From positions 1,221,501 to 1,285,500 of the forward strand of contig NZ_RYFW01000002.1 in assembly GCF_004138335.1 (NCBI RefSeq): a DNA stretch of 64,000 nt. The letters run 5' to 3'. Shown here piece by piece: positions 2,311 to 64,000 of the stretch (its first letter is position 1; every line of letters starts with the position of its first letter). The stretch is from Peristeroidobacter agariperforans (GTDB lineage: Bacteria > Pseudomonadota > Gammaproteobacteria > Steroidobacterales > Steroidobacteraceae). Position numbers and translations under genes: made by a program. The notes under the pieces are model-generated. The model was not told where the DNA came from and searched no databases. It saw nothing but the letters and a program-made list of their open reading frames with translations.

Positions 2311-2436
2311 TCACAGCGTGCTGACGCCGCCGTCCACGAGCAGTTCACTGCCGAGCATGAAACGGGACTCGTCGGAGGCCAGGAACACCGCGGCCTTCGC
2401 GAGCTCGAGCGGCGTGCCCATGCAGTGGCGCCGGAT
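2311..2436 (-). pseudogene. C-terminal remnant of a short-chain dehydrogenase/reductase
   Basis: Reading the minus strand back from a TGA at 2313-2311 gives about 36-42 codons that match the C-terminus of classical SDR enzymes: MGTPLELAKAAVFLASDES, then RFMLGSELLVDGGVSTL and stop. This is the standard end of the fold (P-E-E-I-A-x-x-V-x-F-L-A-S-D then G-x-x-L-x-V-D-G-G). Upstream of about 2436 the frame loses all SDR resemblance and runs into the end of the TonB receptor gene, so the Rossmann domain and the YxxxK active site are absent. The fragment cannot be functional by itself. It looks like the scar of a deletion or a replacement by the neighbouring receptor gene. Confidence 0.72.
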
Positions 2437-2457
2437 TATTTCAACAGCCGAAGCGCG

Positions 2458-4563: not shown

Positions 4564-4740
4564 GACAGTCCACTGCTTTGTGGGTGTCCGCGGCTCTGAC
4601 GGCCGCGGTTCTTAACAAGAAGTTTAGGTGGCGGCCGCGGAGAGGATCATGTGATTCGCGCGCCAAAGCACCGGCCGCTTGCAAGGATCAAGCGGCCCAC
4701 GGTGGAGCAGTGGAAGATGTCTGCGCTAGCGATTTATGCG

Positions 4741-5919: not shown

Positions 5920-6056
5920 CGGGAAAGGCGGGAGGTTAACAGCGCGCTGGCTGCATGCGCAGTTGTCGCGATCTGCGAACACTGGCGCTGCTGCCACAAT
6001 TGATCACGATCTGCGCGCGCGGCGACGCTATGCTTGGCGGACTAAGGAGAAATTAC

Positions 6057-6944
6057 ATGTCGCGCAGCTGGATCTTGAGTGCCGTTACGTCGTTGTCGCT
6101 GGTGGGCTCTGTAAATGCTGCCCCGATCGAGTGCTCGCGGTGTGAAGCCTGGAACAAGGAGCAGGTTCCGTTTCAGATCTACGGCAACACTTACTATGTG
6201 GGGCCCCACGGCTTGAGCTCGGTATTGATCACATCGCCGCAAGGTCACGTGTTGATCGACGGCGCCTTGCCGCAGTCGGCGCCGTTGATCGCGAAGCATG
6301 TCGAGCAGTTGGGCTTCAAGCTGACCGATGTGAAAGTCATCGTGAACTCACATACACACTACGATCATGCCGGCGGTATTGCCGAGCTGCAGAAACTGAC
6401 GGGTGCGAAAGTGATCGCGAGCGACAAAGCTGCACCGGTCCTGCGTAGTGGTCGCGTAGAGTCCGACGATCCGCAGGTTGAGCATCTGCTCCCATTCCCC
6501 GCCGTGAGCAATGTGGAAGCCTTGGGCCAGAGGCCATCGTTGCAAGTGGGCACATTGAAGCTGAGCGTGATCCATACACCCGGCCACGCACCGGGTGGCA
6601 CATCCTGGCGCTGGCAGTCTTGCGAAGCGGAGCGCTGCTTGAATTTGGTTTACAGCGACAGCTTGAACGCGGTCTCGGACAAATCGTTCAAGTACGGCGG
6701 CGACCCGCGCTGGCCAACAGCGGCGAAGGAGCTGAGCACGAGCATGGCGGCGATCTCGGCCGCGCCCTGTGACATCTTGATCACGGCGCACCCCGAGCTG
6801 TCGGGGTTATCGGCTGCCATCGATGAGCGCGGCCACGGCGATCGAGCCAAGCTCATCGATTCAGCGGCCTGCAAGCGTTACGTAGCAACGACGCGCCAGT
6901 TGCTCGACAAGCGGCTGGCCAGCGAGAAAAGCGCTCAGCACTAA
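6057..6944 (+). CDS. Subclass B3 metallo-beta-lactamase
   Basis: A 295-residue exported protein: signal peptide at 1-21 (cleavage near VNA-A), then an MBL fold. All ligands expected for a di-zinc B3 enzyme are visible: His99, His101, Asp103 and His104 in SHTHYDH, His177 in HTPGHAPGG, and His245 in ITAHPELSG. The GTSW motif after His177 is also typical of B3. Such enzymes hydrolyse penicillins, cephalosporins and carbapenems in the periplasm. The start is fixed by AAGGAG at 6044-6049, 7 nt before the ATG; the frame is open upstream to 5955. It converges with the outer-membrane protein gene at 6941, the stops overlapping by 4 bp. Chromosomal context and no mobile element suggest an intrinsic gene. 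Activity is inferred from the residues only. Confidence 0.92.
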   Translation: MSRSWILSAVTSLSLVGSVNAAPIECSRCEAWNKEQVPFQIYGNTYYVGPHGLSSVLITSPQGHVLIDGALPQSAPLIAKHVEQLGFKLTDVKVIVNSHTHYDHAGGIAELQKLTGAKVIASDKAAPVLRSGRVESDDPQVEHLLPFPAVSNVEALGQRPSLQVGTLKLSVIHTPGHAPGGTSWRWQSCEAERCLNLVYSDSLNAVSDKSFKYGGDPRWPTAAKELSTSMAAISAAPCDILITAHPELSGLSAAIDERGHGDRAKLIDSAACKRYVATTRQLLDKRLASEKSAQH

Positions 6945-7621
6945 AACCGATACAAGAACGCCAGCTGGAGGATGGGCCACAGGTCGTAATCGCTTACCTC
7001 ATCCTCGATGCGCTGCTGTTCGCGCTCGATGTCGGCTTGAAACTGGTTCGTGCCGGCGAGCGGCCCGGTCGCACGCAAGTTGTCGATGGTCGGTTTCCCC
7101 TGCCAAAGCACACCTATCTCGGCGCCCAGCGTGAAACCTTTCGCGAGCGTACCGCCATAGCCGATCGTCAACGCCGGAGCGAAGTCATCCGTCGTCACGG
7201 TGCCGACGAGCGTGCCTACCTGTGCCGGCGAATAGGTCGTACCGCCAATCGTGACATTCGTGGTCGGCGCTCCCACCAACTCGACCTCGTTATTGTTCGC
7301 CCGTGCGCCCACGGAAATCCGCAGGCCGTCGCCGGTGGGATACCAGTCCAGCATGACGCCGAACGAGTTCAGATTCAGATCGCCATCGTAGCTGATGTCA
7401 TCTACTTCCTCGTCGCGCGAGATCGTCAGGAAACCTGCGTTTGCGCGCGCTCCGAGATATGGGCTGGCACGAAATGCCAGCTCTGGTCCAACGCCCAGCG
7501 TGCCGCCGGTGACGCCGAGCGACCATCGGCCAGCGGAGCTGTCCTGCCCATGAGCAAGGAATGGTGCTGTACTTATACCGAGCGCGATAACGCCTCTCGC
7601 AATCCAGTTGGACGAATTCAT
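6941..7621 (-). CDS. Small outer-membrane beta-barrel protein
   Basis: A 226-residue protein with a signal peptide (MNSSNWIARGVIALGISTAPFLAHGQ) followed by alternating polar/hydrophobic strands and a terminal Phe (LAFLYRF), the pattern of an 8- to 12-strand outer-membrane barrel. The N-terminal strand GVTGGTLGVGPELAFR is typical of opacity/porin-like families. The start at 7621 is favoured because GGGGG lies 8 nt upstream; the ATG at 7627 is too close to it. A helical, charged insertion near the C-terminus (QADIEREQQRIEDEVSD) precedes the last strands. It converges with and overlaps the beta-lactamase gene by 4 bp, so the two mRNAs are antisense at their ends. Exact role not recognised. Confidence 0.8.
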   Translation of the reverse strand: MNSSNWIARGVIALGISTAPFLAHGQDSSAGRWSLGVTGGTLGVGPELAFRASPYLGARANAGFLTISRDEEVDDISYDGDLNLNSFGVMLDWYPTGDGLRISVGARANNNEVELVGAPTTNVTIGGTTYSPAQVGTLVGTVTTDDFAPALTIGYGGTLAKGFTLGAEIGVLWQGKPTIDNLRATGPLAGTNQFQADIEREQQRIEDEVSDYDLWPILQLAFLYRF

Positions 7622-7765
7622 GTTCATACCCCCGTGGCCTCGGCAGCGATAACGATGCGGCTCGCCGCTAGTTCCACGGCGGGGTCTACGGGATTTCACG
7701 TTCACCTACGGTGAGCCACAGCGTTGCTGCGAACGCCCGCTGCGTGCCAAAGCTATCGATACCGC

Positions 7766-7796
7766 TTGACCTCAAGCCCACTTGAGCTTGTACATT
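7766..7796 (+). promoter_or_regulatory. SoxR-type promoter/operator upstream of the methyltransferase
   Basis: TTGACC at 7766-7771 and TACATT at 7791-7796 form -35 and -10 elements separated by 19 bp, the over-long spacing that MerR-family activators correct. Centred in the spacer is an inverted repeat, CCTCAAG-CCCA-CTTGAGC at 7770-7787, matching the known SoxR box CCTCAAG-N4-CTTGAGG at all but the last base. The methyltransferase ATG lies 37 bp beyond the -10. No soxR gene is in the window. Spacing and half-sites together make a chance match unlikely. Confidence 0.82.
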
Positions 7797-7833
7797 GGCC
7801 GCATCGCCGCAGTAGCGCCGAACAGAGGACAGT

Positions 7834-8685
7834 ATGAGCGAAGCGCTCGTTGCCAATCAGGATCAGGTGGCGCTCTGGAACGACGCGTCGGGGCGGACCT
7901 GGGTGGAAATGCAGCCGGTGCTCGATCGGATGCTGTCGCCGTTTGAGGCGCCACTGATCGAAGCGGCATTTCCAGGGCAGGCCGGTCGTGTGCTCGACGT
8001 GGGCTGCGGCTCGGGAGCGACGACGCTTGCGATGGCGAAACGATTGGGTACGAGCGGCAGGTGTGTCGGGGTGGATATTTCTGGGCCGTTGCTAGCGGCC
8101 GCGAGGCAGCGTGCGGCTGCTGATGGAATCGATACAGCGACATTCGTACAGGCGGATGCGCAGACTCATGCGTTCGTTCCGGGCAGTTTCGATGCGATGA
8201 TCTCTCGGTTCGGGGTCATGTTCTTCGATGCTCCGGAAGCAGCGTTCGACAATATCCGTCGCGCGATGCGCATCGGCGCGAAGTTGGCCCTCGTTGCGTG
8301 GCGGAGTCCCGCGGAGAATCCGTTCATGACGACGGCCAAACGCGCGGCCGAGCCATTGCTGACAAACATGCCCAAGCCCGATCCGAATGCTCCTGGGCAG
8401 TTCGCGTTCGCGGATGGCAATCGGGTTCGAGGCATCCTGCAAGCCGGCGGCTGGAGCGACATCGACGTGCAGCCGTTGGATGCGGAAGGAACGATCGCCG
8501 AAAGCGAGTTGCTCGCCTATGTGACCAGGCTCGGGCCGGTGGGGCTTGCGTTGAGAGAAGTGGACGAGGCGACGCGAGCGCGCGTAACAGAAGTCGTGCA
8601 CGCCGCCTTCCAGCCTTATATCAAGAATGGCGCCGCGCACTTCGGGATGGCGTGCTGGCTCGTGACTGCGACGAGGAAACACTGA
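7834..8685 (+). CDS. Class I SAM-dependent methyltransferase, probably SoxR-controlled
   Basis: A 283-residue cytoplasmic protein with the Rossmann-like methyltransferase core: motif I VLDVGCGSGATT at about 52-63, the acidic ribose-binding residue at the end of strand 2 (GVDISGPLL), and the post-motif II region FVQADAQTH. The segment DAMISRFGVMFFDAPEAAF is typical of small-molecule methyltransferases of the UbiE/menaquinone-like group. The substrate cannot be read from sequence. The gene stands alone behind a SoxR-type promoter, so its expression is predicted to rise with redox-cycling compounds; methylating a phenolic or quinone compound is a reasonable but untested idea. Start follows GAGGAC-like sequence and fits the family N-terminus. 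Confidence 0.9.
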   Translation: MSEALVANQDQVALWNDASGRTWVEMQPVLDRMLSPFEAPLIEAAFPGQAGRVLDVGCGSGATTLAMAKRLGTSGRCVGVDISGPLLAAARQRAAADGIDTATFVQADAQTHAFVPGSFDAMISRFGVMFFDAPEAAFDNIRRAMRIGAKLALVAWRSPAENPFMTTAKRAAEPLLTNMPKPDPNAPGQFAFADGNRVRGILQAGGWSDIDVQPLDAEGTIAESELLAYVTRLGPVGLALREVDEATRARVTEVVHAAFQPYIKNGAAHFGMACWLVTATRKH

Positions 8686-8824
8686 GCGAATTCATATCGA
8701 CCGGCGCCCCGCAGGAAAGTTCAAGTGGCTTGTACCAGCTTGAGCTGTGCGCGGGCCGCGTTAGTTTCCATCCATTACGCGATCATGTTCCTGGTCGATA
8801 GCTCTCACAGAAAGGAGTTACGTC

Positions 8825-9247
8825 ATGGCGATGAGCGTTTCCGCGAGTGCTAGTGGCGAGCCGTTGGTGGATATGAATACGACGCCGTTGATCGACGTCA
8901 TGCTGGTGCTGCTGATCATGTTCATCATCACGCTGCCGGTGGTGACCAACAACATCAAACTGGATCTGCCCGTCAAACCCGACGGCAAGGCGGCGACGAC
9001 CGAAAAAATCGATCTGACGATTGATTACGACGGCACCATTCTCTGGAACGGCGCGGTGATCGAAAGCCTCGCGCAACTGGAGCAGTACTTCCGTGCCGAG
9101 GCAGCCAGGCCCAATCAGCCCGAGCTGCACGTTCGACCGGACAAACGCGCGAAGTACGATTACGTCGCGCAGGTGCTTGGCAGCGCTCAGCGCAGCGGCA
9201 TGCAGCGCATTGGCTTCGCGGGCCAGGAACAATTCATTGAGAAGTAG
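8825..9247 (+). CDS. exbD: ExbD/TolR-family biopolymer transport protein
   Basis: A 140-residue inner-membrane protein with one N-terminal span. The sequence DMNTTPLIDVMLVLLIMFIIT holds the membrane Asp that carries protons in ExbD/TolR, and the periplasmic domain ends in the family motif YDYVAQVLGSAQRSGMQRIGF. It would pair with an ExbB/TolQ-type channel to energise TonB or a similar protein. The ribosome site AAAGGAG stands 7 nt before the ATG. No exbB or tonB gene is adjacent, which is unusual since these genes usually cluster; it probably supplements a complete system elsewhere, and may serve the TonB receptors in this window. Confidence 0.93.
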   Translation: MAMSVSASASGEPLVDMNTTPLIDVMLVLLIMFIITLPVVTNNIKLDLPVKPDGKAATTEKIDLTIDYDGTILWNGAVIESLAQLEQYFRAEAARPNQPELHVRPDKRAKYDYVAQVLGSAQRSGMQRIGFAGQEQFIEK

Positions 9248-9250
9248 TCG

Positions 9251-9631
9251 TCAGCCGGGCGTATTGATCACGGCTTCGATCCGATAGCCGTCGGGGTCGA
9301 GCACGAACGCGGCGTAATAGTGCGGGCCGTAATCGAGACGCAGTCCCGGCGGCCCGTTATCTTGCCCGCCGTGTTCCAGCGCGGCAGCGTGAAAGCGATC
9401 GACTTGATCGCGGGCTTGGGCCGCGAGCGCCAGATGAAAACCAGGCCCGGGAATGACGATGCCTTTCGGCACGAGCTTCAATGCCAGCTTGTCGTCGCCG
9501 CCCGGATAGCCATAGCCCACCGCCGTATCGTCGCTCCAGACGCGCACGAAGCCCAGCGGCGCGAGCGCCGCATCGTAGAAGCAGGCCGCCCGCTGCAGAT
9601 CGCGGACGGCGAACGAGATGTGATGAAGCAT
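9251..9631 (-). CDS. VOC (glyoxalase/dioxygenase superfamily) protein
   Basis: A 126-residue protein consisting of one VOC domain: an N-terminal His strand (MLHHISFAV), the pairing loop RAACFYDAALAPLGF, and the C-terminal PDGYRIEAV with its conserved metal-ligand Glu. VOC proteins use a divalent metal for isomerase, lyase or ring-cleaving reactions or bind antibiotics; the residues do not tell which. The start at 9631 follows the aminotransferase stop with one base between (TGA-C-ATG), so translation is likely coupled, although no separate ribosome site is apparent. Pairing with an aromatic-type aminotransferase hints at work on a 2-oxo acid product; this is inference. Confidence 0.85.
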   Translation of the reverse strand: MLHHISFAVRDLQRAACFYDAALAPLGFVRVWSDDTAVGYGYPGGDDKLALKLVPKGIVIPGPGFHLALAAQARDQVDRFHAAALEHGGQDNGPPGLRLDYGPHYYAAFVLDPDGYRIEAVINTPG

Positions 9632-9632
9632 G

Positions 9633-10823
9633 TCAGGCGACCGAACCGATCGCCTTGGCGATGTAATCGATCGATTCCATGCTGACACCCGCGATGTTGA
9701 TACGGCCATCGCGCGTCATATAGATGTGGTGCTGCTGGCGCAGTGTATCGGCCGCCTCCGGCGTCACCGGGATGGTCGAGAACATGCCGCGCTGTTTTTC
9801 GATCACAGAAGCCATCTCGGCGCTGCAAGTCTTGGCCAGCGCCGCGGACAGCGCGCTACGGAGCGAAAGCATCCGGTTGCGCATGGCGTCGACTTCGTTG
9901 CGCCAATCTTCACTGAGCTTCGTGTCGCTAAGGATGCGCGCGACAATGGCTGCGCCGTGATCCGGCGGCATCGACCAAACGCCGCGAGCGATTTTGCGTA
10001 GATGACTGGTCGCGGCGTTCGTCTGCGTGCCGGACTCCGACAGCACCATGAGCGCGCCGACGCGTTCACGATACAAACCGAAGTTCTTCGAGCACGACAC
10101 GGCGATGAGCGCTTCGGGCACCGTCGCCGCAATCAGACGAGCGCCTTCGGCATCCGCTTCGATGCCTTCGCCCAAACCTTGATATGCGATATCGACGTAC
10201 GGCACGAGCCGACGTTGCAACAACACGTCGGCAATCTTGCGCCACTGTGCGATCGATAGATCCGCACCCGTCGGGTTGTGACAGCAGCCGTGCAACAACA
10301 CGACATCGCCCGCGGGCAGCGAGCTCAGACGCTCGAGCATGGCGTCGAATTTCACCGTGCCGGTGCGATGTTCGAAGTAGGGATAGCGCTCGAGCTGCAA
10401 TCCTGCGCCGCTGAGCAGCGGCACGTGATTGGCCCAGGTCGGATCGCTGACGTGAACCGTCGGGCGCGCGCCGCCGACGGTCAGCAGTTCTGCGCCCAAA
10501 CGCAAGGCTCCACATCCGCCCGGCGATTGCACTGCTCGCACGCGGCCGCTGGTCAGTGCCGGATGTTTGCTGCCGAGAACCAGTTCGGCGATCAGCGCAT
10601 TGAACTGCTCGTTGCCAGCCGGCCCGACGTATGTCTTGGTCTGTTGGTCGGCGAGCACTGCCTGCTCGGCGGCCCGCACGGCGCGCAACACGGGGGTTTT
10701 GCCATGCTCGTCTTTATAAACGCCTACGCCCAGATCGATTTTCGTGGCAGCCGTGTCGGCGCGAAAGGCCGCCATCAGGCCGAGGATGGGGTCTTCGGGA
10801 AGCGCTTGCAGGTTCTCGAACAA
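9633..10823 (-). CDS. Aspartate/aromatic amino acid aminotransferase (class Ia), TTG start
   Basis: A 396-residue PLP enzyme of the AspC/TyrB family. Visible landmarks are the N-terminal FENLQALPEDPILGL, the substrate-loop GVGVYKDE, the PLP-contacting DIAYQGLG and the Schiff-base lysine in SCSKNFGLYRERVGAL. It exchanges amino groups between aspartate or aromatic amino acids and 2-oxoglutarate. I place the start at a TTG (10823) because the family begins exactly there and CGGAG lies 9 nt upstream; the frame is open to an ATG at 11003, but that would add 60 residues unlike any family member and overlap the neighbour. It is translationally coupled to the VOC gene downstream. Confidence 0.92.
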   Translation of the reverse strand: MFENLQALPEDPILGLMAAFRADTAATKIDLGVGVYKDEHGKTPVLRAVRAAEQAVLADQQTKTYVGPAGNEQFNALIAELVLGSKHPALTSGRVRAVQSPGGCGALRLGAELLTVGGARPTVHVSDPTWANHVPLLSGAGLQLERYPYFEHRTGTVKFDAMLERLSSLPAGDVVLLHGCCHNPTGADLSIAQWRKIADVLLQRRLVPYVDIAYQGLGEGIEADAEGARLIAATVPEALIAVSCSKNFGLYRERVGALMVLSESGTQTNAATSHLRKIARGVWSMPPDHGAAIVARILSDTKLSEDWRNEVDAMRNRMLSLRSALSAALAKTCSAEMASVIEKQRGMFSTIPVTPEAADTLRQQHHIYMTRDGRINIAGVSMESIDYIAKAIGSVA

Positions 10824-54203: not shown

Positions 54204-55640
54204 TTGCTGACAAGAATTCGTTTCATAGGAGTGTTGTCAGCAACGTGCGTGATAGCGGGTGCCACGGCGTCGAAGCGACCAGATCGAGCATGGTGGCTGC
54301 TTGTTTCGTTGGCACTGTGTTCGGCATGCTCGTCGAATCCCCGAGTCCAAGCGCCTGAGCAGGCTGCGCCGATCGTCGCAAGGCAGCGAGTGCTGTCCGA
54401 GGACGAGAGCGATCCGCTGCTGAAATCGGCGCTCGAGGAATATCAGGACGACGCGGCAGTTCGCGAGTTGGTGGCAGCAGTGCGCCAGTACTCGTCCATG
54501 CCGTTGACCAGCGGCAATCGGGTCGGCGCGCTCATCGACGGTCCGCAAACGTACGCCGCCATCGAAGCGGATCTGAAGGCGGCTCGACACCACATCCATC
54601 TCGAGACGTTCATCTTCGGCGCCGACGAAATCGGCCGGCGCTTCGGCGAGCTGCTGGCGCAAAAGCGCAAGGAAGGCGTCGAAGTCCGCGTGCTCTACGA
54701 CAGTATCGGCAGCATGGACACGCCGAAAGATTTCTTCGAGCAGCTGCGGCAGCAAGGCATCGAAGTGCGCGAGTTCCGGCCGATGAATCCTGTGAAGAAC
54801 CCGCGCATCTGGGACATTCATAACCGCGACCATCGCAAGATCATCGTGATCGATGGCAAGGTCGGGTTCACCGGCGGCATCAATATCGACAGCACGTATT
54901 CCAGCCCGTCCTCTAGTCGCCCCGGGCCGAAGCGCGGCATCGACGATGGCTGGCGCGATACGCACATGCGCATTCAAGGCCCGGCGGTGAAACAGCTGCA
55001 GACACTGTTTCTACAGTCCTGGGCCGAAGCGGGTGAGCCGCTGCCGGCAAAACAGGGCGATCGGTATCTGCCGGCCGTCCCATCCCCCGGGAACACGTTG
55101 ATCACGATCGTCGGCAATGACAGCGAGTCGGATGACCGTTCGTTGTACGGAACGTATCTGGCGGCGTTCAAACAATCCAGCCGCCGGCTGTGGATTACTC
55201 ACGCCTACTTCGCGCCCAATCCGGAGCTGTTGGATGCGCTGGTGGACGCCGCACGGCGCGGCGTCGATGTCCGGCTCATCGTGCCGGCGTTCACCGACTC
55301 GCGGATCGTGCTGAATGCCACGCAATCGACGTTCACGCCATTGCTGAACGCGGGGGTGAAAATCTACGAGCTCAAGGACGCGCTGCTCCACGCAAAGAGC
55401 GTGGTGATCGACGGCTCGGTCTCCATCGTCGGTTCTGCCAACCTCGACATGCGCAGCTTCCTGCACAACGACGAAGTCAATGCCATCGTCATCGATCGCG
55501 ACTTCGGCCAGCGCATGGAAGAAGTGTTCAAGCGGGACGAGCGCGCCTCGCGACCGGTCACGCTCGAACGCTGGCAGAAGCGGTCGCTCTGGCAGCGGTT
55601 CAAGGAGTTCGGCGTGAAGCTGTTCGGCTATTGGATCTAG
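54204..55640 (+). CDS. Phospholipase D/cardiolipin synthase-like protein
   Basis: A 478-residue protein with two HKD motifs, HRKIIVIDGKVGFTGGINI and HAKSVVIDGSVSIVGSANLD, the signature of the PLD superfamily. The N-terminus holds a hydrophobic stretch and a lipobox-like LCSAC at about 40, so it may be a lipoprotein exposed in the periplasm rather than a cytoplasmic-side synthase with two spans as in ClsA. The nominal ATG at 54204 gives an unusually long leader; internal GTG codons (for example near residue 16) are possible starts. It would make cardiolipin or transfer phosphatidyl groups. Confidence 0.88.
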   Translation: MLTRIRFIGVLSATCVIAGATASKRPDRAWWLLVSLALCSACSSNPRVQAPEQAAPIVARQRVLSEDESDPLLKSALEEYQDDAAVRELVAAVRQYSSMPLTSGNRVGALIDGPQTYAAIEADLKAARHHIHLETFIFGADEIGRRFGELLAQKRKEGVEVRVLYDSIGSMDTPKDFFEQLRQQGIEVREFRPMNPVKNPRIWDIHNRDHRKIIVIDGKVGFTGGINIDSTYSSPSSSRPGPKRGIDDGWRDTHMRIQGPAVKQLQTLFLQSWAEAGEPLPAKQGDRYLPAVPSPGNTLITIVGNDSESDDRSLYGTYLAAFKQSSRRLWITHAYFAPNPELLDALVDAARRGVDVRLIVPAFTDSRIVLNATQSTFTPLLNAGVKIYELKDALLHAKSVVIDGSVSIVGSANLDMRSFLHNDEVNAIVIDRDFGQRMEEVFKRDERASRPVTLERWQKRSLWQRFKEFGVKLFGYWI

Positions 55641-56650
55641 GGGCCTCGCCACGCGCGCATGAACTCCGCGCGTTGAGTCGTCTCGTCATCGTGGTAGCGG
55701 GAGGAGAAGTGAAAAGGCTGGGCCTCCTTGACCGAGGCGAGTCGCGCGATCGTTCCCGCTTGCGTGGTCGTGAGATGTGACTTGCCGGCCGCCAGCTCCC
55801 GATCCGCTTCCAGGAATACCGCTTCAATGAACAGCAAATCGGCATTGGCGACGAACGGAATGACACGGTCCCGATTCTCCGGCGTCCAACCGGTGTCGGT
55901 CACGTAGCACACCTTCTGGCCAGGAACGAATTTCAGTACGTCGCGCTTCAATTCGCCGAGCGGGAATGTTTTCTCGCGCGAGCCCTCGCGCGTACGCCAT
56001 CGGACATTGATTGGAGTGTGGTCCGGCGCGCCAGCTCTCGCCAGCTTCTTCAGCTCGGTCAGCCAGGGGCCGGTAGGCAGGCCGCGACTCTCCAGCCGAT
56101 TCTTCCATACATTGATGTGCGTGGCTTCTTCGAAGCAGAAGGCGAGCGACTGGATGTCGTGATGTTCGAGCGCAACGGTGCGGACCAGGAACGCTTCGTC
56201 CCGCAGTAGCACGCCATCTTCGCTCACCGGATCGGGCAGCGCCTCCCGAGCGAACTTGTCTCTGCTCCGAAAGCGCGCGCAGGCGACGCTGCCATCGGCG
56301 TGCACTTCATGGACCTCGATGATGAAGTCGACGGAGTAGTTCTGCACCAGATTCCAGGTATACGCCGCGAGCTTGTGCTCCACCTGGGCAATGAAATGCT
56401 CGGGGCCGTACAGCCGCACGCCGGTATCGCGTCCCAGGCACACTCGCAGCAGATGATCGAAGCCGGCGAAGTGATCCATGTGAGTGTGGCTTACGAATAC
56501 GTCGCTGACTCGCAGGAGCACGCGCGTCGACAACGACTGCACATCGCCAATATCGAACAACAGCGCGCGACGCTGAAACTTCAGGTCGATGCACACCCCG
56601 GGATCGCCCCAGACCCCGTTGACCAGCCTGGCGTGGTAGATCGGCCGCAT
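55637..56650 (-). CDS. MBL-fold hydrolase, RNase Z-like
   Basis: A 337-residue protein with the metal-binding HTHMDH (His55, His57, Asp59, His60) in VFVSHTHMDHFAGFDHLLR, the later Asp in CYVTDTGWT and a His in KSHLTTTQAG. The order and LLFDIGD opening match the RNase Z/phosphodiesterase branch (YP_like ElaC relatives) rather than beta-lactamases. It lacks the long exosite arm of ElaC, so tRNA processing is uncertain. Its stop overlaps that of the PLD gene by 4 bp, tail to tail. No signal peptide. Confidence 0.88.
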   Translation of the reverse strand: MRPIYHARLVNGVWGDPGVCIDLKFQRRALLFDIGDVQSLSTRVLLRVSDVFVSHTHMDHFAGFDHLLRVCLGRDTGVRLYGPEHFIAQVEHKLAAYTWNLVQNYSVDFIIEVHEVHADGSVACARFRSRDKFAREALPDPVSEDGVLLRDEAFLVRTVALEHHDIQSLAFCFEEATHINVWKNRLESRGLPTGPWLTELKKLARAGAPDHTPINVRWRTREGSREKTFPLGELKRDVLKFVPGQKVCYVTDTGWTPENRDRVIPFVANADLLFIEAVFLEADRELAAGKSHLTTTQAGTIARLASVKEAQPFHFSSRYHDDETTQRAEFMRAWRGP

Positions 56651-56701
56651 GCTCGCGCAACGCGGCCCCGCAGGCGAAGTTCCTGTGCGAGCTTCGCTGG
56701 C

Positions 56702-58540
56702 TTACGTGGGGCTCTCGCTGGGACTTGCGCCGGGCACTTCGTTGAGCGCCTTGCCTTCGGTGCGGGGCTTGCTGAATGGAGTGGGGCGCGAGGGCGTCTG
56801 TGCGGTATTCCGTAGCAACATGCCGATTCCGGCCTCATACCCGCCGCCGGCGATCTCGAGGGCGAAACGTTCGGCGTCGCGCTCTCGAATCGAGGCGAGA
56901 ATGTCGGCAATCTCCGAGTCGCTGACTTCGAGCAGGCGCAATGCTGCGCCTCCGGCCTGCAGCGCCGACTCGAATGTTTCCCTGATCTGATAGTCGACGC
57001 CGGCGCCCACGAGCTGACGCGCATGCTCGCGATCGAAGGCGCGTACCAACAGCTGGGCTTGTGGAAACTCGGAGCGCACCAGCTCGACGATGCGATCGGC
57101 GGTCTTGCGGTTCTCGACGCAGACGGCGATCTGGCGCGCCTTGCCGGCGCCGGAGGCGCGCAACACGTCGAGGCGGGTGCCATCGCCGTAGTACACAGTG
57201 AAGCCGAATTGCTGGGCAGCGCGGATCATCTCGACATCCGCATCGATGATGCTCACGTCGACGCCCCGCGCGAGCAGCGCTTGACTGACAACCTGGCCGA
57301 AGCGGCCGAAGCCGATCATGAGCACGCTGCCTTCGAGCCCGTCCGCGATGGGAATGCCGTCCATCGATTGGCTCGCGGGCTCGATGAAACGCCGGACCAC
57401 GATGACCATCAGCGGCGTCAGCACCATCGAGAGCACGACGATCGCGGTCATGTTGGCGTTGACGGTGTCGTCGATGATGCCGACGGCAGCAGCGGCGCCG
57501 TACAGGACAAACGCGAACTCACCGCCTTGTGCCATCAGCACCGCGCGATCCAGAGCTTCTGGATGCGAGCTGCGAGTCACGCGCGCGACGATATAGATGC
57601 ACAGCGCTTTGGTGGCCATCATTGCCGGCACGGCGGCCGCGATCAGCGCCCAATTGTCCGCGACCACTTTCAAGTCGAGGCTCATGCCCACAGCCAGGAA
57701 GAACAGGCCCAAGAGCAAACCGCGGAACGGCTCGACATCCGCTTCGAGTTGATGACGGAAGGTCGATTCGGACAACAGCACGCCGGCGATGAATGCGCCC
57801 ATTGCCATCGAAAGGCCGCCCATCTCCATCAACAGCGCCGAACCGAGCACGACGAGCAAGGCTGCTGCCGACATCACTTCCCGCGTGCGCGCGAGCGCCA
57901 GAATGCTGAAGAGCGGATTGAGCAGCCACACGCCTGCGGCGATCAGACCGGCGAGGGAACCGATGCCGGTCAGCATGGAAATCCACTGCGGCGTATCCGA
58001 TTCGGTCGCTGCGGCCGGCGAGAGGAAGCTCACCAGCGCCAGCAGCGGGACGATCAACAGATCTTCGAACAACAACACCGACACCATCTTCTGCCCGTGA
58101 GGCAGCGCGATGTCGCCGCGCTCGGCGAGCAGTTGCATGACGATGGCCGTCGAGGTGAGCACGAAGCCGGCGCCGCCGATAAAGGCAACCACCGGCGAGA
58201 AGCCGAACGCCATGCCGACGCCGGTGAGCCCGAGCGTGCAAGCGGCAATCTGCAGAGCGCCGAGACCGAAAATCTGCCGTCGCAGGTGCCACAGGTGCGA
58301 AGGCCGCATCTCCAGGCCGATGATGAAAAGGAACATCACGACGCCGAGCTCGGCGAATCGCAGGATGGCGTGCGGATCGGAGAACAGGCCGAGCCCGAAA
58401 GGACCGATCAACAGGCCGGCGGCGAGGTAGCCCAGCACCGAGCCGAGGCCCAGCCGTCTGAACAAGGGAACCGCGATGACCGCGGCGCCCAGCAACGCGA
58501 CGGCGTTGACCAACATGCTTGAATCGTGTTCCGGGGCCAT
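56702..58540 (-). CDS. KefB/KefC-like CPA2 cation:proton antiporter with RCK domain
   Basis: A 612-residue protein. About 5-385 is a 12-13 span CPA2 exchanger (GSVLGYLAAGLLIGPFGLGLFSD; FLFIIGLEMRPSHLWHLRRQIFGLG; LFFLAVGMSLDLK). About 405-520 is a TrkA-N/RCK Rossmann domain (VLMIGFGRFGQVVSQALLARG; VYYGDGTRLDVLRASGAGKARQIAVCVEN). In Kef proteins this domain senses glutathione adducts and opens K+ efflux. The C-terminal tail is Ser/Pro-rich. No KefF/G partner gene is adjacent. Gene is alone; 51 bp separate it from the upstream RNase Z-like gene. Confidence 0.93.
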   Translation of the reverse strand: MAPEHDSSMLVNAVALLGAAVIAVPLFRRLGLGSVLGYLAAGLLIGPFGLGLFSDPHAILRFAELGVVMFLFIIGLEMRPSHLWHLRRQIFGLGALQIAACTLGLTGVGMAFGFSPVVAFIGGAGFVLTSTAIVMQLLAERGDIALPHGQKMVSVLLFEDLLIVPLLALVSFLSPAAATESDTPQWISMLTGIGSLAGLIAAGVWLLNPLFSILALARTREVMSAAALLVVLGSALLMEMGGLSMAMGAFIAGVLLSESTFRHQLEADVEPFRGLLLGLFFLAVGMSLDLKVVADNWALIAAAVPAMMATKALCIYIVARVTRSSHPEALDRAVLMAQGGEFAFVLYGAAAAVGIIDDTVNANMTAIVVLSMVLTPLMVIVVRRFIEPASQSMDGIPIADGLEGSVLMIGFGRFGQVVSQALLARGVDVSIIDADVEMIRAAQQFGFTVYYGDGTRLDVLRASGAGKARQIAVCVENRKTADRIVELVRSEFPQAQLLVRAFDREHARQLVGAGVDYQIRETFESALQAGGAALRLLEVSDSEIADILASIRERDAERFALEIAGGGYEAGIGMLLRNTAQTPSRPTPFSKPRTEGKALNEVPGASPSESPT

Positions 58541-58664: not shown

Positions 58665-60764
58665 TCAGCGGTCTTGGGATGCCTTTTCCCGGAGTTGCTC
58701 GGCGACCTCATCGGCCGGCAGCATCAACGTTTCATCTGACAGCACGACGGCTTCGGAAATGGTCGGCGAGTTGTCGGACGACTCGTCGGCGTTCATCGCC
58801 ACTTGTGCCGTCGGCAGCGAGCGGTCGGCATTTTTCAGGACCTGGAAGGCCTCTTCCGCCTCGAGCGGACCGCAGTAGAAGTAGCCCTGGGCGTAGTCGC
58901 ATCCCATTCGTTGCAGGTCGCGCGCAGCGTCATCGGTCTCGACGATCTCGGCAACCGAGCGCAGGCCGAGGCTGCTGGTCATTTGCACGATGGCAGCCGC
59001 GATCGCGGTATTGGCATGCGCCGAGCCGGCGCGATCGACGAACGGCCTGTCGATCTTCACGTAGCTGAAGGGGAACAGCTGCAGGTAGCTCAACGACGAG
59101 TAGCCGGTGCCGAAGTCATCGAGCATCATCTCGATGCCGAGATCGTGCAGACCTTCGAGGATCTCGCGGGCTCCGCCGGGATTGCTCATCAGCCCGCCTT
59201 CGGTCAGTTCCAGTTTCAGGTATTCGGGCGAGACACCAGTGTCCTTGAGCACTTGCTCTACGTAGGAAGTGAACTCGGGATCGCGCAGCGCGGCGGCAGA
59301 GACGTTTACTGTGAGATAGAAGTCGCGATCGCGGGGCAAGCGATGACGCCATTCGGCGGCGAGCGTGCAGACTTGCAGGATGGTCCAGCGCGTGATCGGC
59401 ACGATCAAGCCGACTTCTTCGGCGAGTGCGAGAAACTTGTCCGGCGTCAGCATGCCTTCGATGGGATGCCGCCAGCGGAGCAGCGACTCGGCGCCGGCGA
59501 CGCAATCGTTCCGCAGGTCGACAATGGGCTGATACATCAAGTGCAGCTCGCGACGCTGGAGCGCGACGTGCAAATCGGCTTCCAGGCTCACCAGGCTCGC
59601 AGCGCTGCTACCCATCGCGGGCTGGTATGCAACCGCGGTCGCGGTATCGTGCCGTCTTGCGACCGATAGAGCGATGTCGGCTTCACGCACAGCTTCTTCC
59701 GCGCGTTGCAGACCCGAGTCGATGCAGGTGACGCCGACTCGAGCTGCCACGTTGAGTTGATGCTTGCGCAGTTCGAAGGGCTGCTGCAGCGTCTTCTGTA
59801 ACAGTCCGGCGATGTCGAGCGCGCCGTCCGCCGAGGGCACATCGAAGATCAGCATCGCGAACTGATCGCCGCTCCAGCGCGCCAGCACGTGTTCGAACTG
59901 TGCCGCGGCTTTCTGGAATCGTCGGGCTGCCTGCACGACGACCTCGTCGCCGGCGGTGTGGCCGAGCGAGTCGTTGATCAGCTTGAAACGATCGATGTTG
60001 ATGAGCATCACCGCGAGTCGTTGCCGGCGACGCGTGCGGACCTCCCGCAAGGCGCGATCGAGCTGATCCATGAAGTAGCGGCGGTTCGGCAGGCCGGTGA
60101 ACGCGTCGTGATAGCGCGAATGCTCGAAGCTCTTCTGCAGGTTCTCGCGCTGCTCGATTTCGAGCGCCAGCTTGCGTTGGGTCGATTGCAGCTGGCGTCG
60201 CGAGAGTGACAGAGCATCCCGCGCCCGGTGCAAGCTGTGCACCAGATCGTGAGTTGCAAACGCCAGCATCCAGGCGACGACCGCCAGCAACGCGATAGCC
60301 GCGGCCAGTTCGCGTGCGGGATACCAGCCAGCCTTGGGGCGCAACGCGAGCTGCACATAACCGCCGGCCAGCTCTTGCGCGTAACCTTCCGGCAAGCGGA
60401 TGCGGCTGATGATGGGATCGTCCAGCCGCTCGATCCGGCTGCTCACGAAGATTCGCGGCGCGCCGCCGCTGGTGTCCACTTTCGACAGCTCGAAGTCGTA
60501 CTCCGGATCGACGATGCGATTCAGCTGCAGCTTCGAGAGCAATTGATCCAGCTCCGCGCCACTCTCGCGCGCAGCCAATGTTTGCAGCTGGCGCTCGACC
60601 GCTCGGCTGTACGTCGTAACAAGCGTGCCCGCCGTCGCACGCGTCTGCTCGGCGCGTTCGCCGACACTCAGCGCAATGAGCCGAGCGCCCGCGAGCACGA
60701 CGACCGCCAGCACCAACAAGGTGAGGGGCCATTGCGAGCCGCGTTTCAGAAGCGAAAGTTTCAT
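58665..60764 (-). CDS. Membrane GGDEF-EAL protein, probable c-di-GMP phosphodiesterase
   Basis: A 699-residue protein: TM1 at about 13-33, a periplasmic sensor part 35-150, TM2 at 152-172, a coiled coil, GGDEF domain about 213-375 and EAL domain about 390-645. The GGDEF site is SGDQF (298-302), which should abolish cyclase activity. The EAL domain keeps its essential residues: Glu426 (as ESL), Asn487, Glu519, Asp549-Asp550 in DDFGTG, Lys570, Glu606 and the QGY at 626. So it probably degrades c-di-GMP, perhaps with GTP binding to the dead GGDEF as a switch. It is the last gene of a four-gene operon, overlapping the outer-membrane gene by ATGA. Confidence 0.93.
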   Translation of the reverse strand: MKLSLLKRGSQWPLTLLVLAVVVLAGARLIALSVGERAEQTRATAGTLVTTYSRAVERQLQTLAARESGAELDQLLSKLQLNRIVDPEYDFELSKVDTSGGAPRIFVSSRIERLDDPIISRIRLPEGYAQELAGGYVQLALRPKAGWYPARELAAAIALLAVVAWMLAFATHDLVHSLHRARDALSLSRRQLQSTQRKLALEIEQRENLQKSFEHSRYHDAFTGLPNRRYFMDQLDRALREVRTRRRQRLAVMLINIDRFKLINDSLGHTAGDEVVVQAARRFQKAAAQFEHVLARWSGDQFAMLIFDVPSADGALDIAGLLQKTLQQPFELRKHQLNVAARVGVTCIDSGLQRAEEAVREADIALSVARRHDTATAVAYQPAMGSSAASLVSLEADLHVALQRRELHLMYQPIVDLRNDCVAGAESLLRWRHPIEGMLTPDKFLALAEEVGLIVPITRWTILQVCTLAAEWRHRLPRDRDFYLTVNVSAAALRDPEFTSYVEQVLKDTGVSPEYLKLELTEGGLMSNPGGAREILEGLHDLGIEMMLDDFGTGYSSLSYLQLFPFSYVKIDRPFVDRAGSAHANTAIAAAIVQMTSSLGLRSVAEIVETDDAARDLQRMGCDYAQGYFYCGPLEAEEAFQVLKNADRSLPTAQVAMNADESSDNSPTISEAVVLSDETLMLPADEVAEQLREKASQDR

Positions 60765-61567
60765 TGCCCTCGCGAGCCTAGATACGCGATAAAGCTCAAG
60801 GTAACGGTGATCTTCTCGCTGCCCGCCACTTCCAGCAGATCGCCGAGCAACTGGATCTCGGCACGCTTGAAGGGCTTGGCAATGCCGAGGAAGTATTCAT
60901 TCGAGTAGCTGGGCGGCAGCACCACACCGGGTTGCAGCACCAGCACCGCCGGATTGGCTTTACCGGTCGAGCCGCCAAGCATCATATTGACGTGCTTGCC
61001 GTAGTAGTCGAAGCGGGCGCTGGTGAGTTCGGTGCCCAGATTGCCGCTCACCGATTGGGCATAGGCAATGTTGGTCACGAACTTCGGCGACCACACGTAG
61101 GTCAGGCCGAGCTTGGGCAGATTGCCGTGCGTGGTGTCGATATCGATCTGGCGCGACTCGAGTTGCACCGAGAATTTGCTGCCGATCGCCTGGCTGATGC
61201 CCAACACGCCGACCTGGTAATCGAATTTGCGGCCGTTGTCGTCGCCTTCGCCATTGTAGTACTCCCCGATGAGAATGAAGCGACGGGCCGGCTCGCCGCG
61301 CCCCCAGGCTGCGCGCACCGAGCCATAGGTCAGCTTGGCTTCCTCGACGAAGGTATGGTCGGCACCGAAGCCGGCGAGGAAGTCGGGCGTGAAGTAGTGC
61401 AGATAGCTGAGCGAGCCGCCACCGCCGTCATCGTCGGTGTCGACGAAGCTGGAGGCGCTGCCGCTCAAGGATAGTTTGTCGAACGGACGCGCATCGACTT
61501 CGGCGGCGCCGGCGGACGCAGTCGCCGCGAGCGAGGACAAGCACAGGACGGCGGATGCAAACCTCAT
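60761..61567 (-). CDS. Outer-membrane beta-barrel of the beta-helix/c-di-GMP operon
   Basis: A 268-residue exported protein (signal ending ASAGA-AE). The rest alternates polar and hydrophobic residues in long strands (SLSYLHYFTPDFLAGFGADHTFVEE, RRFILIGEYYNGEGDDNGR, DYQVGVLGISQAIGSKFSVQLESRQIDI), consistent with a 10- to 14-strand barrel, though the last residue is Gln rather than Phe. Loops are Gly/Asp-rich. Start overlaps the PAS gene's stop, and its stop the GGDEF-EAL start, each by 4 nt, so it is made in step with both. I do not recognise the family; an exporter of polymer or a sensor barrel is possible. Confidence 0.82.
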   Translation of the reverse strand: MRFASAVLCLSSLAATASAGAAEVDARPFDKLSLSGSASSFVDTDDDGGGGSLSYLHYFTPDFLAGFGADHTFVEEAKLTYGSVRAAWGRGEPARRFILIGEYYNGEGDDNGRKFDYQVGVLGISQAIGSKFSVQLESRQIDIDTTHGNLPKLGLTYVWSPKFVTNIAYAQSVSGNLGTELTSARFDYYGKHVNMMLGGSTGKANPAVLVLQPGVVLPPSYSNEYFLGIAKPFKRAEIQLLGDLLEVAGSEKITVTLSFIAYLGSRGQ

Positions 61568-62976
61568 GGGGGCGACACCAACGTTGAATTGGAGAGGGAG
61601 TTCCTTGGAGCGTCGGCGAGGTGCGCGGCCGTGATGTCACTACGGTCGCCGAGAGCGGCGCGTCCCATCGGCAGGAACGCGACGATGTAAAGGCGTTCGT
61701 CCTCGCCGGGCAGCGGCGAAGCGGAGCAGGTCACTTGATAAACGCGCGGGCCGATCTCGATGTGCATCTTGCGACGGCCCGTGAGTCCCGGTTCCCACCA
61801 GCGCGGCGGCATGCCGCCGAGCGACAGCATGTTCGATGCGTCGCTATCCTTGTCGAGGGCTGCGAACAGGGCCTGCGCCGGTTTGTTGAACGAGAGCAGC
61901 CGGCCCTGCGAGTCGATGACCAGCATGGCCTGGCCGCTGACATCGAGCGCCGCGTGAGCTGTGAATTCCTCGGTCTTGTCGTGAATGACGACCAGTGCGA
62001 ACCGCCGCCCGGTCTGCGTCAGGTGCCGCACCTGAACTTCCGTCGCTCGCAGCCGGTCGCCCACTTTGATCATGCTCAGCGGCACCACGCCGCCCGAGCC
62101 GGAAATCGCCTCCTGCACCATCTCCGGATAGGAGAAACGAATGACCTCGAACAGCGGCCGACCGCTGGCGCTTTCTTGATCCTGGAAACGGGTGGCTCGA
62201 GTACTGGCGCAAACGACCTGTAGCGTGTCGCTGTCGATCAACAGCGCCGGGAACGGCATCGCTTCGATCAGGGTGGTCCAGAATTCCTGGCCGCGCTCGG
62301 CTTCGGCGCGGGCGACATCCACATGCGAGTGCAATCGTTCGAAGATGGTGCCGAGATATTCGGCCGCCACTGCGCACGCGAGCAGCAGGATCGCGAACAC
62401 CTGCAGCAGCACGGCGTAGTAGGCCGAGGGTGCGTAAAACCCGGGAAATGTCGACGCCGATGTTTGCTGTCCGAGAATCGCCGCGAGCGATGCGCCAAGC
62501 TCGTTGAGGCCGGGCACATACCAGCGCAGCTCCGGGGCTTGTGCGAGTGCCACGACGCCGGCGACGACGATGGCGAGCACCGCCATCAGATACGGTTGCC
62601 AGCGCGACAGAAAGATCGCACCGACCACTGGCAGCGCGAACACGATCAGAAACGCGGGATTTTGCAGGCCGCCGGCATTCATCCAGATGAAGCCGACGAC
62701 GACGATGCCCAGGATGTGCAACAGGGTGAGCACGGGGCGACGCTCGCCGACGCGGGCCGGTTTGCCGACCACCGTGAATGCAATGTGAATGCCGCCCAGC
62801 GCGAGCAGCCCGAGGCAGGCGGCGACAAAGTTGATATCCAGCGAGCTGACCAGCCAGGGCACGACCGTACCGAGCAGGATGGCGAAGATCGTCAGCAGCC
62901 AGGTGTCATCCAACAGATGGATGCGTGGATCGGTCCACGTCGGCGCCGGGATGATCTGCGTGTCGCCGATGTTCAT
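61564..62976 (-). CDS. Six-helix membrane protein with two PAS-like domains and no output domain
   Basis: A 470-residue protein. Spans lie at about 26-43, 48-70, 82-100, 106-124, 128-146 and 185-206, followed by a short coiled coil (HSHVDVARAEAERGQEFW). About 232-345 is PAS-like (FWTTLIEAMPFPALLIDSDTLQVVCAS) and 345-445 a second one (GQAMLVIDSQGRLLSFNKPAQALFAALDKD). Kinase, cyclase, phosphodiesterase and DNA-binding domains are all absent; the end is a short polar tail. So it senses but must signal through a partner, most simply the GGDEF-EAL protein encoded two genes on. Both ends overlap neighbours by 4 nt. Confidence 0.87.
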   Translation of the reverse strand: MNIGDTQIIPAPTWTDPRIHLLDDTWLLTIFAILLGTVVPWLVSSLDINFVAACLGLLALGGIHIAFTVVGKPARVGERRPVLTLLHILGIVVVGFIWMNAGGLQNPAFLIVFALPVVGAIFLSRWQPYLMAVLAIVVAGVVALAQAPELRWYVPGLNELGASLAAILGQQTSASTFPGFYAPSAYYAVLLQVFAILLLACAVAAEYLGTIFERLHSHVDVARAEAERGQEFWTTLIEAMPFPALLIDSDTLQVVCASTRATRFQDQESASGRPLFEVIRFSYPEMVQEAISGSGGVVPLSMIKVGDRLRATEVQVRHLTQTGRRFALVVIHDKTEEFTAHAALDVSGQAMLVIDSQGRLLSFNKPAQALFAALDKDSDASNMLSLGGMPPRWWEPGLTGRRKMHIEIGPRVYQVTCSASPLPGEDERLYIVAFLPMGRAALGDRSDITAAHLADAPRNSLSNSTLVSPP

Positions 62977-64000
62977 CGCTGCACGGTGCCGGGCTTCGGG
63001 GTGGCATCGCCGGCCGCGACGGTCGCGGCGCCGATGCTGAAGTTGTTGCCCTCGAGAAACGGTGCGGAGCGAATCCTCTCGCCGCCGCCCTCGGGTTGGT
63101 AGTCGGTAATTTTCAGTGCCAGCGCGCGTGGTCGCATGACTTGATTGCCCCGCAGGATGGGCGAGTCGCCGATCACGTCGATGCCGTTGAACTTCGGCTC
63201 GATGATGGTGTTCTCGATGGCGCTGCTGGGACTGCGCTGGTTACCCAGCACGAACGCGAGCCCATAGCCGCTGTTGTGAATCCGGTTCTTGCGGATCACG
63301 GTGTCGGCCGAGGTCTTCAGCATGACGCCATAGGCTTCGATGCCGTCGAACTCGTTGTCTTCGATCACGGCGGCCTGCCCATTCTCGACCACGATGCCCA
63401 TCGCTGCGCCCCGGCTGATGCGATTGCCGCGGACGACTGCGCCGGCGCCCATCAACTGCATCGCAGCTTCCTGTGAATCGAGCAGCTCGTTGCGCTCCAT
63501 GATCATGGAGACATTGGCAGTGAGAATGCCGATGCGCTCCTTGTTGAAGCGGTTGTCGCGGATGCTGATCGCTCCGCCGCGGCTGTCGGGCTCGCTGCGG
63601 ACGGCCCAGATGCCGGCGTCGCGATGCTCGGAGAACTCATTCTTCACGACCATCGCATTCTTGTTGGACGCGGCGAAGCGCACGCCGACGCGGTTCTTGG
63701 CGAAGCGGTTTCGCTCCAGCATCACCTGATCGGCGTTCTCGGCGACATCGATGCCCACGTCGCAATTTTCGATTGAAGCCGCCTGCAATCGAAAGCGGTC
63801 TGCGCGCAGCACGATGCCGGTCTCTTTGCAGTTGTGGATGCGCACGCCTTCGATGGCAATGTTGGCGCCGGAGACATCGAGCACGGCGCCGCCCGGCAGC
63901 TCGCTCGCGTCGATCTCGGTGCCATTCTCGGCAGCAGCAACGACTTTGATGCCACGGGCGTTTGCGAGTGGCGGCAGGGCAGAGGCGAGCGTGATCTTCG
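62973..64000 (-). CDS. Right-handed parallel beta-helix protein, 5' end outside the window
   Basis: The frame stays open to the right edge; at least 342 residues are visible and the start is missing. From about the GTG at 63884 inward the protein is a run of beta-helix coils of 20-25 residues, each with Asn/Gly turns: IEGVRIHNCKETGIVL, MLERNRFAKNRVGVRF, VVKNEFSEHRDAGIW, ISIRDNRFNKERIGIL, VVRGNRISRGAAMGIVV, VIEDNEFDGIEAYGVML, VIRKNRIHNSGYGLAF. This is the NosD/pectate-lyase-like fold, used by polysaccharide lyases, epimerases such as AlgG, and adhesins. No catalytic residues can be assigned. Its stop overlaps the start of the PAS gene by ATGA, heading the visible operon. Confidence 0.86.
   Translation of the reverse strand, partial: KITLASALPPLANARGIKVVAAAENGTEIDASELPGGAVLDVSGANIAIEGVRIHNCKETGIVLRADRFRLQAASIENCDVGIDVAENADQVMLERNRFAKNRVGVRFAASNKNAMVVKNEFSEHRDAGIWAVRSEPDSRGGAISIRDNRFNKERIGILTANVSMIMERNELLDSQEAAMQLMGAGAVVRGNRISRGAAMGIVVENGQAAVIEDNEFDGIEAYGVMLKTSADTVIRKNRIHNSGYGLAFVLGNQRSPSSAIENTIIEPKFNGIDVIGDSPILRGNQVMRPRALALKITDYQPEGGGERIRSAPFLEGNNFSIGAATVAAGDATPKPGTVQR

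What the first reader, a model, noticed from the sequence alone, without database searches (positions are those of the whole stretch)
58665..64000. Four-gene, fully overlapping operon: beta-helix protein, output-less PAS membrane sensor, outer-membrane barrel, GGDEF-EAL enzyme
Seen: all three junctions are 4-nt ATGA overlaps, so the products are made in fixed ratio. Seen: the six-helix protein ends after two PAS-like domains with no effector, and the last gene is a membrane c-di-GMP protein with a degenerate GGDEF site. Known: beta-helix proteins and small barrels work in polymer modification and export (AlgG with AlgE in alginate). Inference: this is an envelope system in which the PAS protein tunes the EAL enzyme, while the beta-helix and barrel act on or export a surface polymer. 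I know of no described system with this set.
Basis: partly seen in the sequence, partly recalled or inferred. Interest (0 to 1): 0.75.

Follow-up and report, generated by a model that had tools for sequence, protein, structure and literature searches.

The report
Seven-gene c-di-GMP-linked surface glycan operon
The four overlapping genes are the second half of a seven-gene operon, kept together in one family of bacteria, that probably makes, modifies and exports an unknown sugar coat under control of the signal c-di-GMP.

Summary
In detail: four minus-strand genes joined by three 4-nt ATGA overlaps (beta-helix, six-helix PAS protein without output, 14-strand barrel, GGDEF-EAL), in a close relative of Steroidobacter agaridevorans. 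But the block is incomplete. Past the window end the operon continues upstream with a methyltransferase, a membrane GT2 glycosyltransferase and a B12-binding radical SAM enzyme, all overlapping. All seven genes lie together in 12 of 14 loci from 14 genomes of one family; contig ends cut the other two. In a 296-genome draw of the order, barrel and PAS protein occur in the same 11 genomes. In three loci the glycosyltransferase gene has moved to the 3' end of the block. Neighbours fit a c-di-GMP-controlled polysaccharide: MBOAT plus AlgX-like genes in one genome, diguanylate cyclase plus PilZ in two. GG[DE]EF is lost in 11 of 11 proteins compared; EAL catalytic residues are complete in 10. Best reading: synthesis, modification and export of a surface glycan, with the EAL enzyme as brake. 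It works like synthase-dependent systems (alginate, Nfr) but lacks QxxRW and AlgG's DPHD: a new variant of a known kind. Polymer, chemistry and sensor input are inferred.

The parts
62973..64000 (-). beta-helix protein, 3' part; the whole gene is 418 aa and starts beyond the window at window-equivalent 64229; N-terminal membrane anchor, right-handed beta-helix
61564..62976 (-). 470 aa membrane protein, six hydrophobic segments plus two PAS-like folds, no output domain
60761..61567 (-). 268 aa outer-membrane barrel, signal-like N-terminus, 14 strands predicted
58665..60764 (-). 699 aa membrane GGDEF-EAL protein: degenerate GGDEF (SGDQF), EAL catalytic residues kept, C-terminal tail with T-h-x-h motif
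62973..62976 (-). ATGA overlap, beta-helix / PAS
61564..61567 (-). ATGA overlap, PAS / barrel
60761..60764 (-). ATGA overlap, barrel / GGDEF-EAL

Best explanation
The four genes are the distal part of a seven-gene operon that assembles, modifies and exports a surface glycan under c-di-GMP control. The membrane GT2 enzyme makes the sugar chain at the inner membrane. The B12-binding radical SAM enzyme and the methyltransferase modify the building block or the chain in the cytoplasm. The anchored beta-helix protein handles or trims the chain in the periplasm. The 14-strand barrel forms the outer-membrane passage or part of it; in the genus a TPR-barrel protein encoded 183 nt upstream may be the main exporter. 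The GGDEF-EAL protein breaks down c-di-GMP locally and so acts as brake; its degenerate GGDEF domain may sense GTP. The PAS membrane protein has no output of its own and probably passes a signal by contact to the EAL enzyme or the synthase. Shown: gene content, order, conservation, motifs, predicted folds. Inferred: chemistry, polymer, direction of control, the PAS contact.
For: The operon continues past the window with rSAM, GT2 and MT, all overlapping. All seven genes lie together in 12 of 14 loci; the other two are cut by contig ends. Barrel and PAS occur in the same 11 of 296 order genomes; GT in those 11 plus one partial match without the operon. The GT gene has moved to the 3' end of the block in 3 of 14 loci. 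The GT profile's only PDB match is hyaluronan synthase (E 1.5e-4); DxD and ED are invariant in 11 of 11. One relative has MBOAT plus AlgX-like genes upstream. Two relatives have GGDEF-only and PilZ genes upstream. EAL residues complete in 10 of 11, GG[DE]EF in 0 of 11. A TPR plus BBP2_2 barrel protein lies upstream in 5 of 14 loci.
Against: QxxRW of processive synthases reads QRVGW in 11 of 11, and TED reads AED. No PilZ or MshEN domain was listed for the window's seven genes and the GGDEF domain has no RxxD I-site. No sugar-nucleotide gene in the operon. The barrel matches generic porins and channels (OmpG, CymA, FadL/TodX), not one exporter. rSAM and MT genes are not known to me from alginate, PNAG or cellulose loci (recalled). 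The acetylation and PilZ neighbours were seen in only 1 and 2 of 14 loci; not all flanking ORFs were scanned. One EAL protein of 11 (L029) has lost a catalytic Glu.
Confidence: 0.6

Rival explanations
1. The operon makes a modified glycolipid or hopanoid-type envelope lipid, not a polymer. The radical SAM enzyme and methyltransferase build the lipid head, the GT2 adds one or few sugars, and beta-helix and barrel help move it to the outer leaflet.
Against: These rSAM scores lie far below curated cut-offs, e.g. HpnJ 37.2 against 577.6 bits. GT is nearest to hyaluronan synthase and PgaC. Acetylation and PilZ neighbours point to polysaccharide. FadL likeness may be only the common 14-strand barrel.
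Confidence: 0.2
2. An uptake or glycan-remodelling system: the barrel imports oligosaccharides released by these agar-degrading bacteria, and the cytoplasmic enzymes modify them.
For: S. agaridevorans degrades agar (title and start of abstract of PMC7966939). The barrel model resembles CymA and OmpG, which pass sugars (recalled).
Against: No glycoside hydrolase, TonB receptor or inner-membrane importer was listed for the seven genes or the TPR-barrel gene. The membrane GT2 points to synthesis.
Confidence: 0.08
3. The radical SAM enzyme matures a peptide (RiPP) or a periplasmic metalloprotein, with the beta-helix in a NosD-like role.
For: Best NCBIfam match of rSAM is the RiPP enzyme ApyD; the best of the beta-helix is NosD. 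Pfam NosD passes its cut-off, as a fold-level match.
Against: Both NCBIfam matches are below cut-off (66.7 against 750; 49.4 against 300). A precursor peptide was not searched for. GT2 and barrel are left unexplained.
Confidence: 0.05

Closest known systems
Nfr system of E. coli (nfrBA-ybcH)
   Same: Inner-membrane GT2, membrane-anchored periplasmic protein, outer-membrane barrel, c-di-GMP control; acetylation genes or a diguanylate cyclase beside some relatives (passages of PMC8669469)
   Different: NfrB carries MshEN, its homologues show QxxRW, and NfrA joins TPR and pore. Here no MshEN was listed, QxxRW reads QRVGW, the operon's barrel stands alone, and rSAM, MT and PAS genes are added
Alginate system (Alg8, Alg44, AlgG, AlgK, AlgE, AlgIJFX)
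   Same: GT2, periplasmic beta-helix, outer-membrane barrel; one relative has MBOAT plus AlgX-like genes (parts of the alginate system from passages of PMC9734138)
   Different: No DPHD or invariant His in the beta-helix; no Alg44-like PilZ gene in the window's operon; 14 strands predicted against a larger AlgE barrel (recalled); rSAM, MT, PAS and EAL inside the operon
PNAG and hyaluronan synthases (PgaC, HAS)
   Same: Weak GT2 likeness
   Different: PgaC 23.3 against cut-off 422.3 bits; partner genes differ
LapD-type GGDEF-EAL receptors
   Same: Inner-membrane GGDEF-EAL with degenerate GGDEF (LapD's own state recalled)
   Different: LapD 127.9 against 1020 bits; EAL catalytic residues kept here

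Membership tests
Synthase-dependent exopolysaccharide systems | Membrane GT2 with D, DxD, TED and QxxRW | tested here: not met
   D, DxD and ED kept in 11 of 11, but TED reads AED and QxxRW reads QRVGW in 11 of 11; so I say 'works like', not 'is'
Synthase-dependent exopolysaccharide systems | Outer-membrane barrel exporter | tested here: inconclusive
   14-strand barrel model, pLDDT 82.5; generic porin and channel matches
Synthase-dependent exopolysaccharide systems | TPR scaffold protein | tested here: inconclusive
   TPR plus BBP2_2 protein 183 nt upstream in the window genome; a relative of it upstream in 5 of 14 loci, all in the genus, one of them cut
Synthase-dependent exopolysaccharide systems | c-di-GMP receptor | tested here: inconclusive
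   None listed for the window's seven genes; PilZ gene upstream in 2 of 14 loci; not every flanking ORF was scanned
Alginate epimerase AlgG | DPHD motif and catalytic His (recalled labels) | tested here: not met
   0 of 13 proteins with DPHD, 0 invariant His columns; one column with His in 11 of 13
NosD maturation protein (TIGR04247) | Curated cut-off 300 bits | tested here: not met
   49.4 bits
HpnJ hopanoid radical SAM | Curated cut-off 577.6 bits | tested here: not met
   37.2 bits
Radical SAM with B12-binding domain | CxxxCxxC, radical SAM and B12-binding domains above cut-off | tested here: met
   CxxxCxxC in 11 of 11; B12-binding 61.8 against 32.1 and Radical_SAM 34.7 against 29.5 bits
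Active diguanylate cyclase | GG[DE]EF | tested here: not met
   0 of 11
EAL phosphodiesterase | Catalytic Glu, Asn, ELTE, DD, Lys, AExVE Glu, Gln (recalled roles) | tested here: met
   The window protein has all; 10 of 11 have all, L029 has K at AExVE
EAL phosphodiesterase | Hydrolyses c-di-GMP | not testable with these tools
   needs an enzyme assay

The most novel reading that the evidence does not exclude
A so far undescribed class of c-di-GMP-governed surface glycan whose sugar is modified by a B12-dependent radical SAM enzyme, made by a synthase with an altered acceptor motif (QRVGW). A dedicated membrane PAS protein would gate it by contact, and the phosphodiesterase's tail would be a phospho-threonine docking site.
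Probability: 0.3. Interest if true: 0.72.

Novelty: new variant of a known kind. Interest (0 to 1): 0.5.

Why it matters
It defines a compact, testable operon for an unknown surface glycan in one bacterial family. It links B12 radical SAM chemistry to a probable exported polymer, a link that paper searches did not show. It also offers an orphan PAS protein and a local c-di-GMP brake encoded in one operon with the machine they may control.

Tried and rejected
AlgG-type epimerase for the beta-helix: no DPHD, no invariant His, one column with His in 11 of 13. NosD, HpnJ, PgaC, LapD as family names: all below NCBIfam cut-off (there the GT and rSAM queries began upstream of the starts chosen later). 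Sequence search of PDB with barrel, PAS and beta-helix profiles: no match. PHROGs: barrel and PAS no match, beta-helix only tail spikes, i.e. probably the common fold.

Wider homologues: the PAS profile found only the own genome among 369 class genomes at E 1e-10, GT only the own among 369 at 1e-15, rSAM only the own among 299 phylum genomes at 1e-40. These are draws, not the whole class or phylum, and in most listed genomes only the best 4 or so first-look candidates were scored, so absence is soft. The GT match in G076 is partial, in a frame that begins with a GNAT domain, with no other operon gene found within the 19.9 kb read. AlgE is not among the 50 rows shown, though Foldseek lists it at TM 0.46; this excludes nothing.

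My first start-codon choice for GGDEF-EAL in relatives gave false gaps near 290 nt; one search corrected it. The rows of alignment A6 for relatives outside the genus still begin at those late starts; the motif counts are not touched by that. Paper searches: listings and abstract starts only, apart from passages of PMC8669469 and PMC9734138; no paper with this gene set was seen.

Rows left out: the GGDEF-EAL alignment used 11 of 14 loci (L010 left out; L013 and L026 cut by contig ends). GT: 11 of 14 (L026 because of my wrong end, L027 and L030 cut). rSAM: 11 (L010 left out; L027 and L028 lack it by contig end). Beta-helix 13 and PAS 13 of 14 (L028 cut). Barrel 14 of 14. L031 and L032 are the same genomes as L010 and L011 and were not counted again.
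Full report
What is there. The window is G000:C10:1221501-1285500. A barrel relative at 97% identity lies in Steroidobacter agaridevorans SA29-B, so the host is a close relative of it. The four ORFs and their three 4-nt ATGA overlaps are as described.

The operon is longer. Beyond the window end (L002 position p = window 56500+p) the same strand carries, in order of transcription: B12-binding radical SAM protein (L002:9976-11577), GT2 glycosyltransferase (8537-9979), methyltransferase (7719-8540), then beta-helix (6473-7729), PAS (5064-6476), barrel (4261-5067) and GGDEF-EAL (2165-4264). With the starts chosen there, five of the six junctions overlap by 4 nt and one, MT/beta-helix, by 11 nt. 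A TPR plus outer-membrane-barrel protein lies 183 nt further upstream on the same strand. Downstream comes a KefB-like antiporter; it was found near the operon in 4 of 14 loci (L002, L010, L011, L012; in L012 some 2.7 kb away), and some of the other stretches end too soon to tell.

Conservation. The barrel occurs in 6 of 14 genus genomes and 11 of 296 order genomes, the own genome counted in both; together 14 distinct genomes, all bearing one family code. All seven genes lie together in 12 of the 14 loci; L027 and L028 are cut by contig ends. Within the 12, GGDEF-EAL of L013 and L026 and GT of L030 are themselves cut by a contig end. The PAS profile hits the same 11 of 296 genomes as the barrel. 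The GT profile hits those 11 and one more, G076, where only a partial match without the operon is seen. In L028, L029 and L030 the GT gene lies after GGDEF-EAL, yet remains in the block. I take this as good evidence of a functional unit. A PAS>barrel 4-nt overlap is available in 14 of 14 loci. Draws of 369 class genomes and 299 phylum genomes gave only the own genome; few candidates per genome were scored there.

Neighbours that speak to function. L014 has an MBOAT acyltransferase and an AlgX-like SGNH protein upstream of rSAM on the same strand. L029 and L030 have a GGDEF-only protein and a PilZ protein there. L025 has a histidine kinase and a response regulator there. L023 has a Ser/Thr kinase just downstream of GGDEF-EAL. 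I scanned chosen flanking ORFs, not all. Acetylation genes and a PilZ receptor belong to the alginate system (passages of PMC9734138), and acetylation or diguanylate cyclase genes lie beside some Nfr loci (passages of PMC8669469).

How it most likely works. The GT makes a glycan at the inner membrane; rSAM and MT modify it or its precursor; the anchored beta-helix handles it in the periplasm; the barrel and, in the genus, perhaps the TPR-barrel protein export it; the EAL enzyme lowers c-di-GMP locally and so restrains it; the PAS protein feeds in a signal by contact. Only content, order, conservation, motifs and predicted folds are shown. The rest is inference, at 0.6 for the overall glycan-export reading. 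Against it stand the altered QxxRW, the missing receptor in the window's own operon and the generic barrel.

Comparison. The nearest described plan is Nfr of E. coli, then alginate. In both the comparison is of working plan, not of membership: tested motifs (QxxRW, DPHD) are not met. I found no paper with this set in seven searches, which cover only open-licence PMC papers.

An extra observation. The GGDEF-EAL tails, otherwise poorly conserved, hold a T-hydrophobic-x-hydrophobic motif in 10 of 11 proteins, against a mean of 2.27 and a maximum of 7 in 2000 shuffles; the stricter form with P or E before T is in 8 of 11, against 0.54 and 5. The motif was chosen after seeing the tails and the proteins are related, so the count is a lead, not a test. 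It resembles phospho-threonine docking sites of FHA domains (recalled).

Noticed in passing
window 58665-58832 (C-terminal tail of GGDEF-EAL) and relatives: Recurrent T-hydrophobic-x-hydrophobic motif in a poorly conserved tail, 10 of 11 proteins; L023 carries many copies and has a Ser/Thr kinase gene next door (L023:1897-3378).
   Followed up: partly
L002:11761-13269 (window-equivalent 68261-69769): TPR plus BBP2_2 outer-membrane protein 183 nt upstream of the operon; relatives of it upstream in 5 of 14 loci, all in the genus; may be the main exporter there.
   Followed up: partly
L028, L029, L030: GT gene relocated to the 3' end of the block after GGDEF-EAL.
   Followed up: yes
L060:10297-11667: Partial GT match with the same QRVGW motif in a frame that begins with a GNAT domain, beside a DUF2334 gene; a DUF2334 gene also lies near the L028 operon.
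   Followed up: partly
L030:7812-8117: Small ORF of 101 aa between the PilZ and rSAM genes without Pfam match.
   Followed up: no
window 54204-58540: PLD-family protein, metallo-hydrolase and KefB-like antiporter downstream of the operon; the antiporter was found near it in 4 of 14 loci.
   Followed up: no
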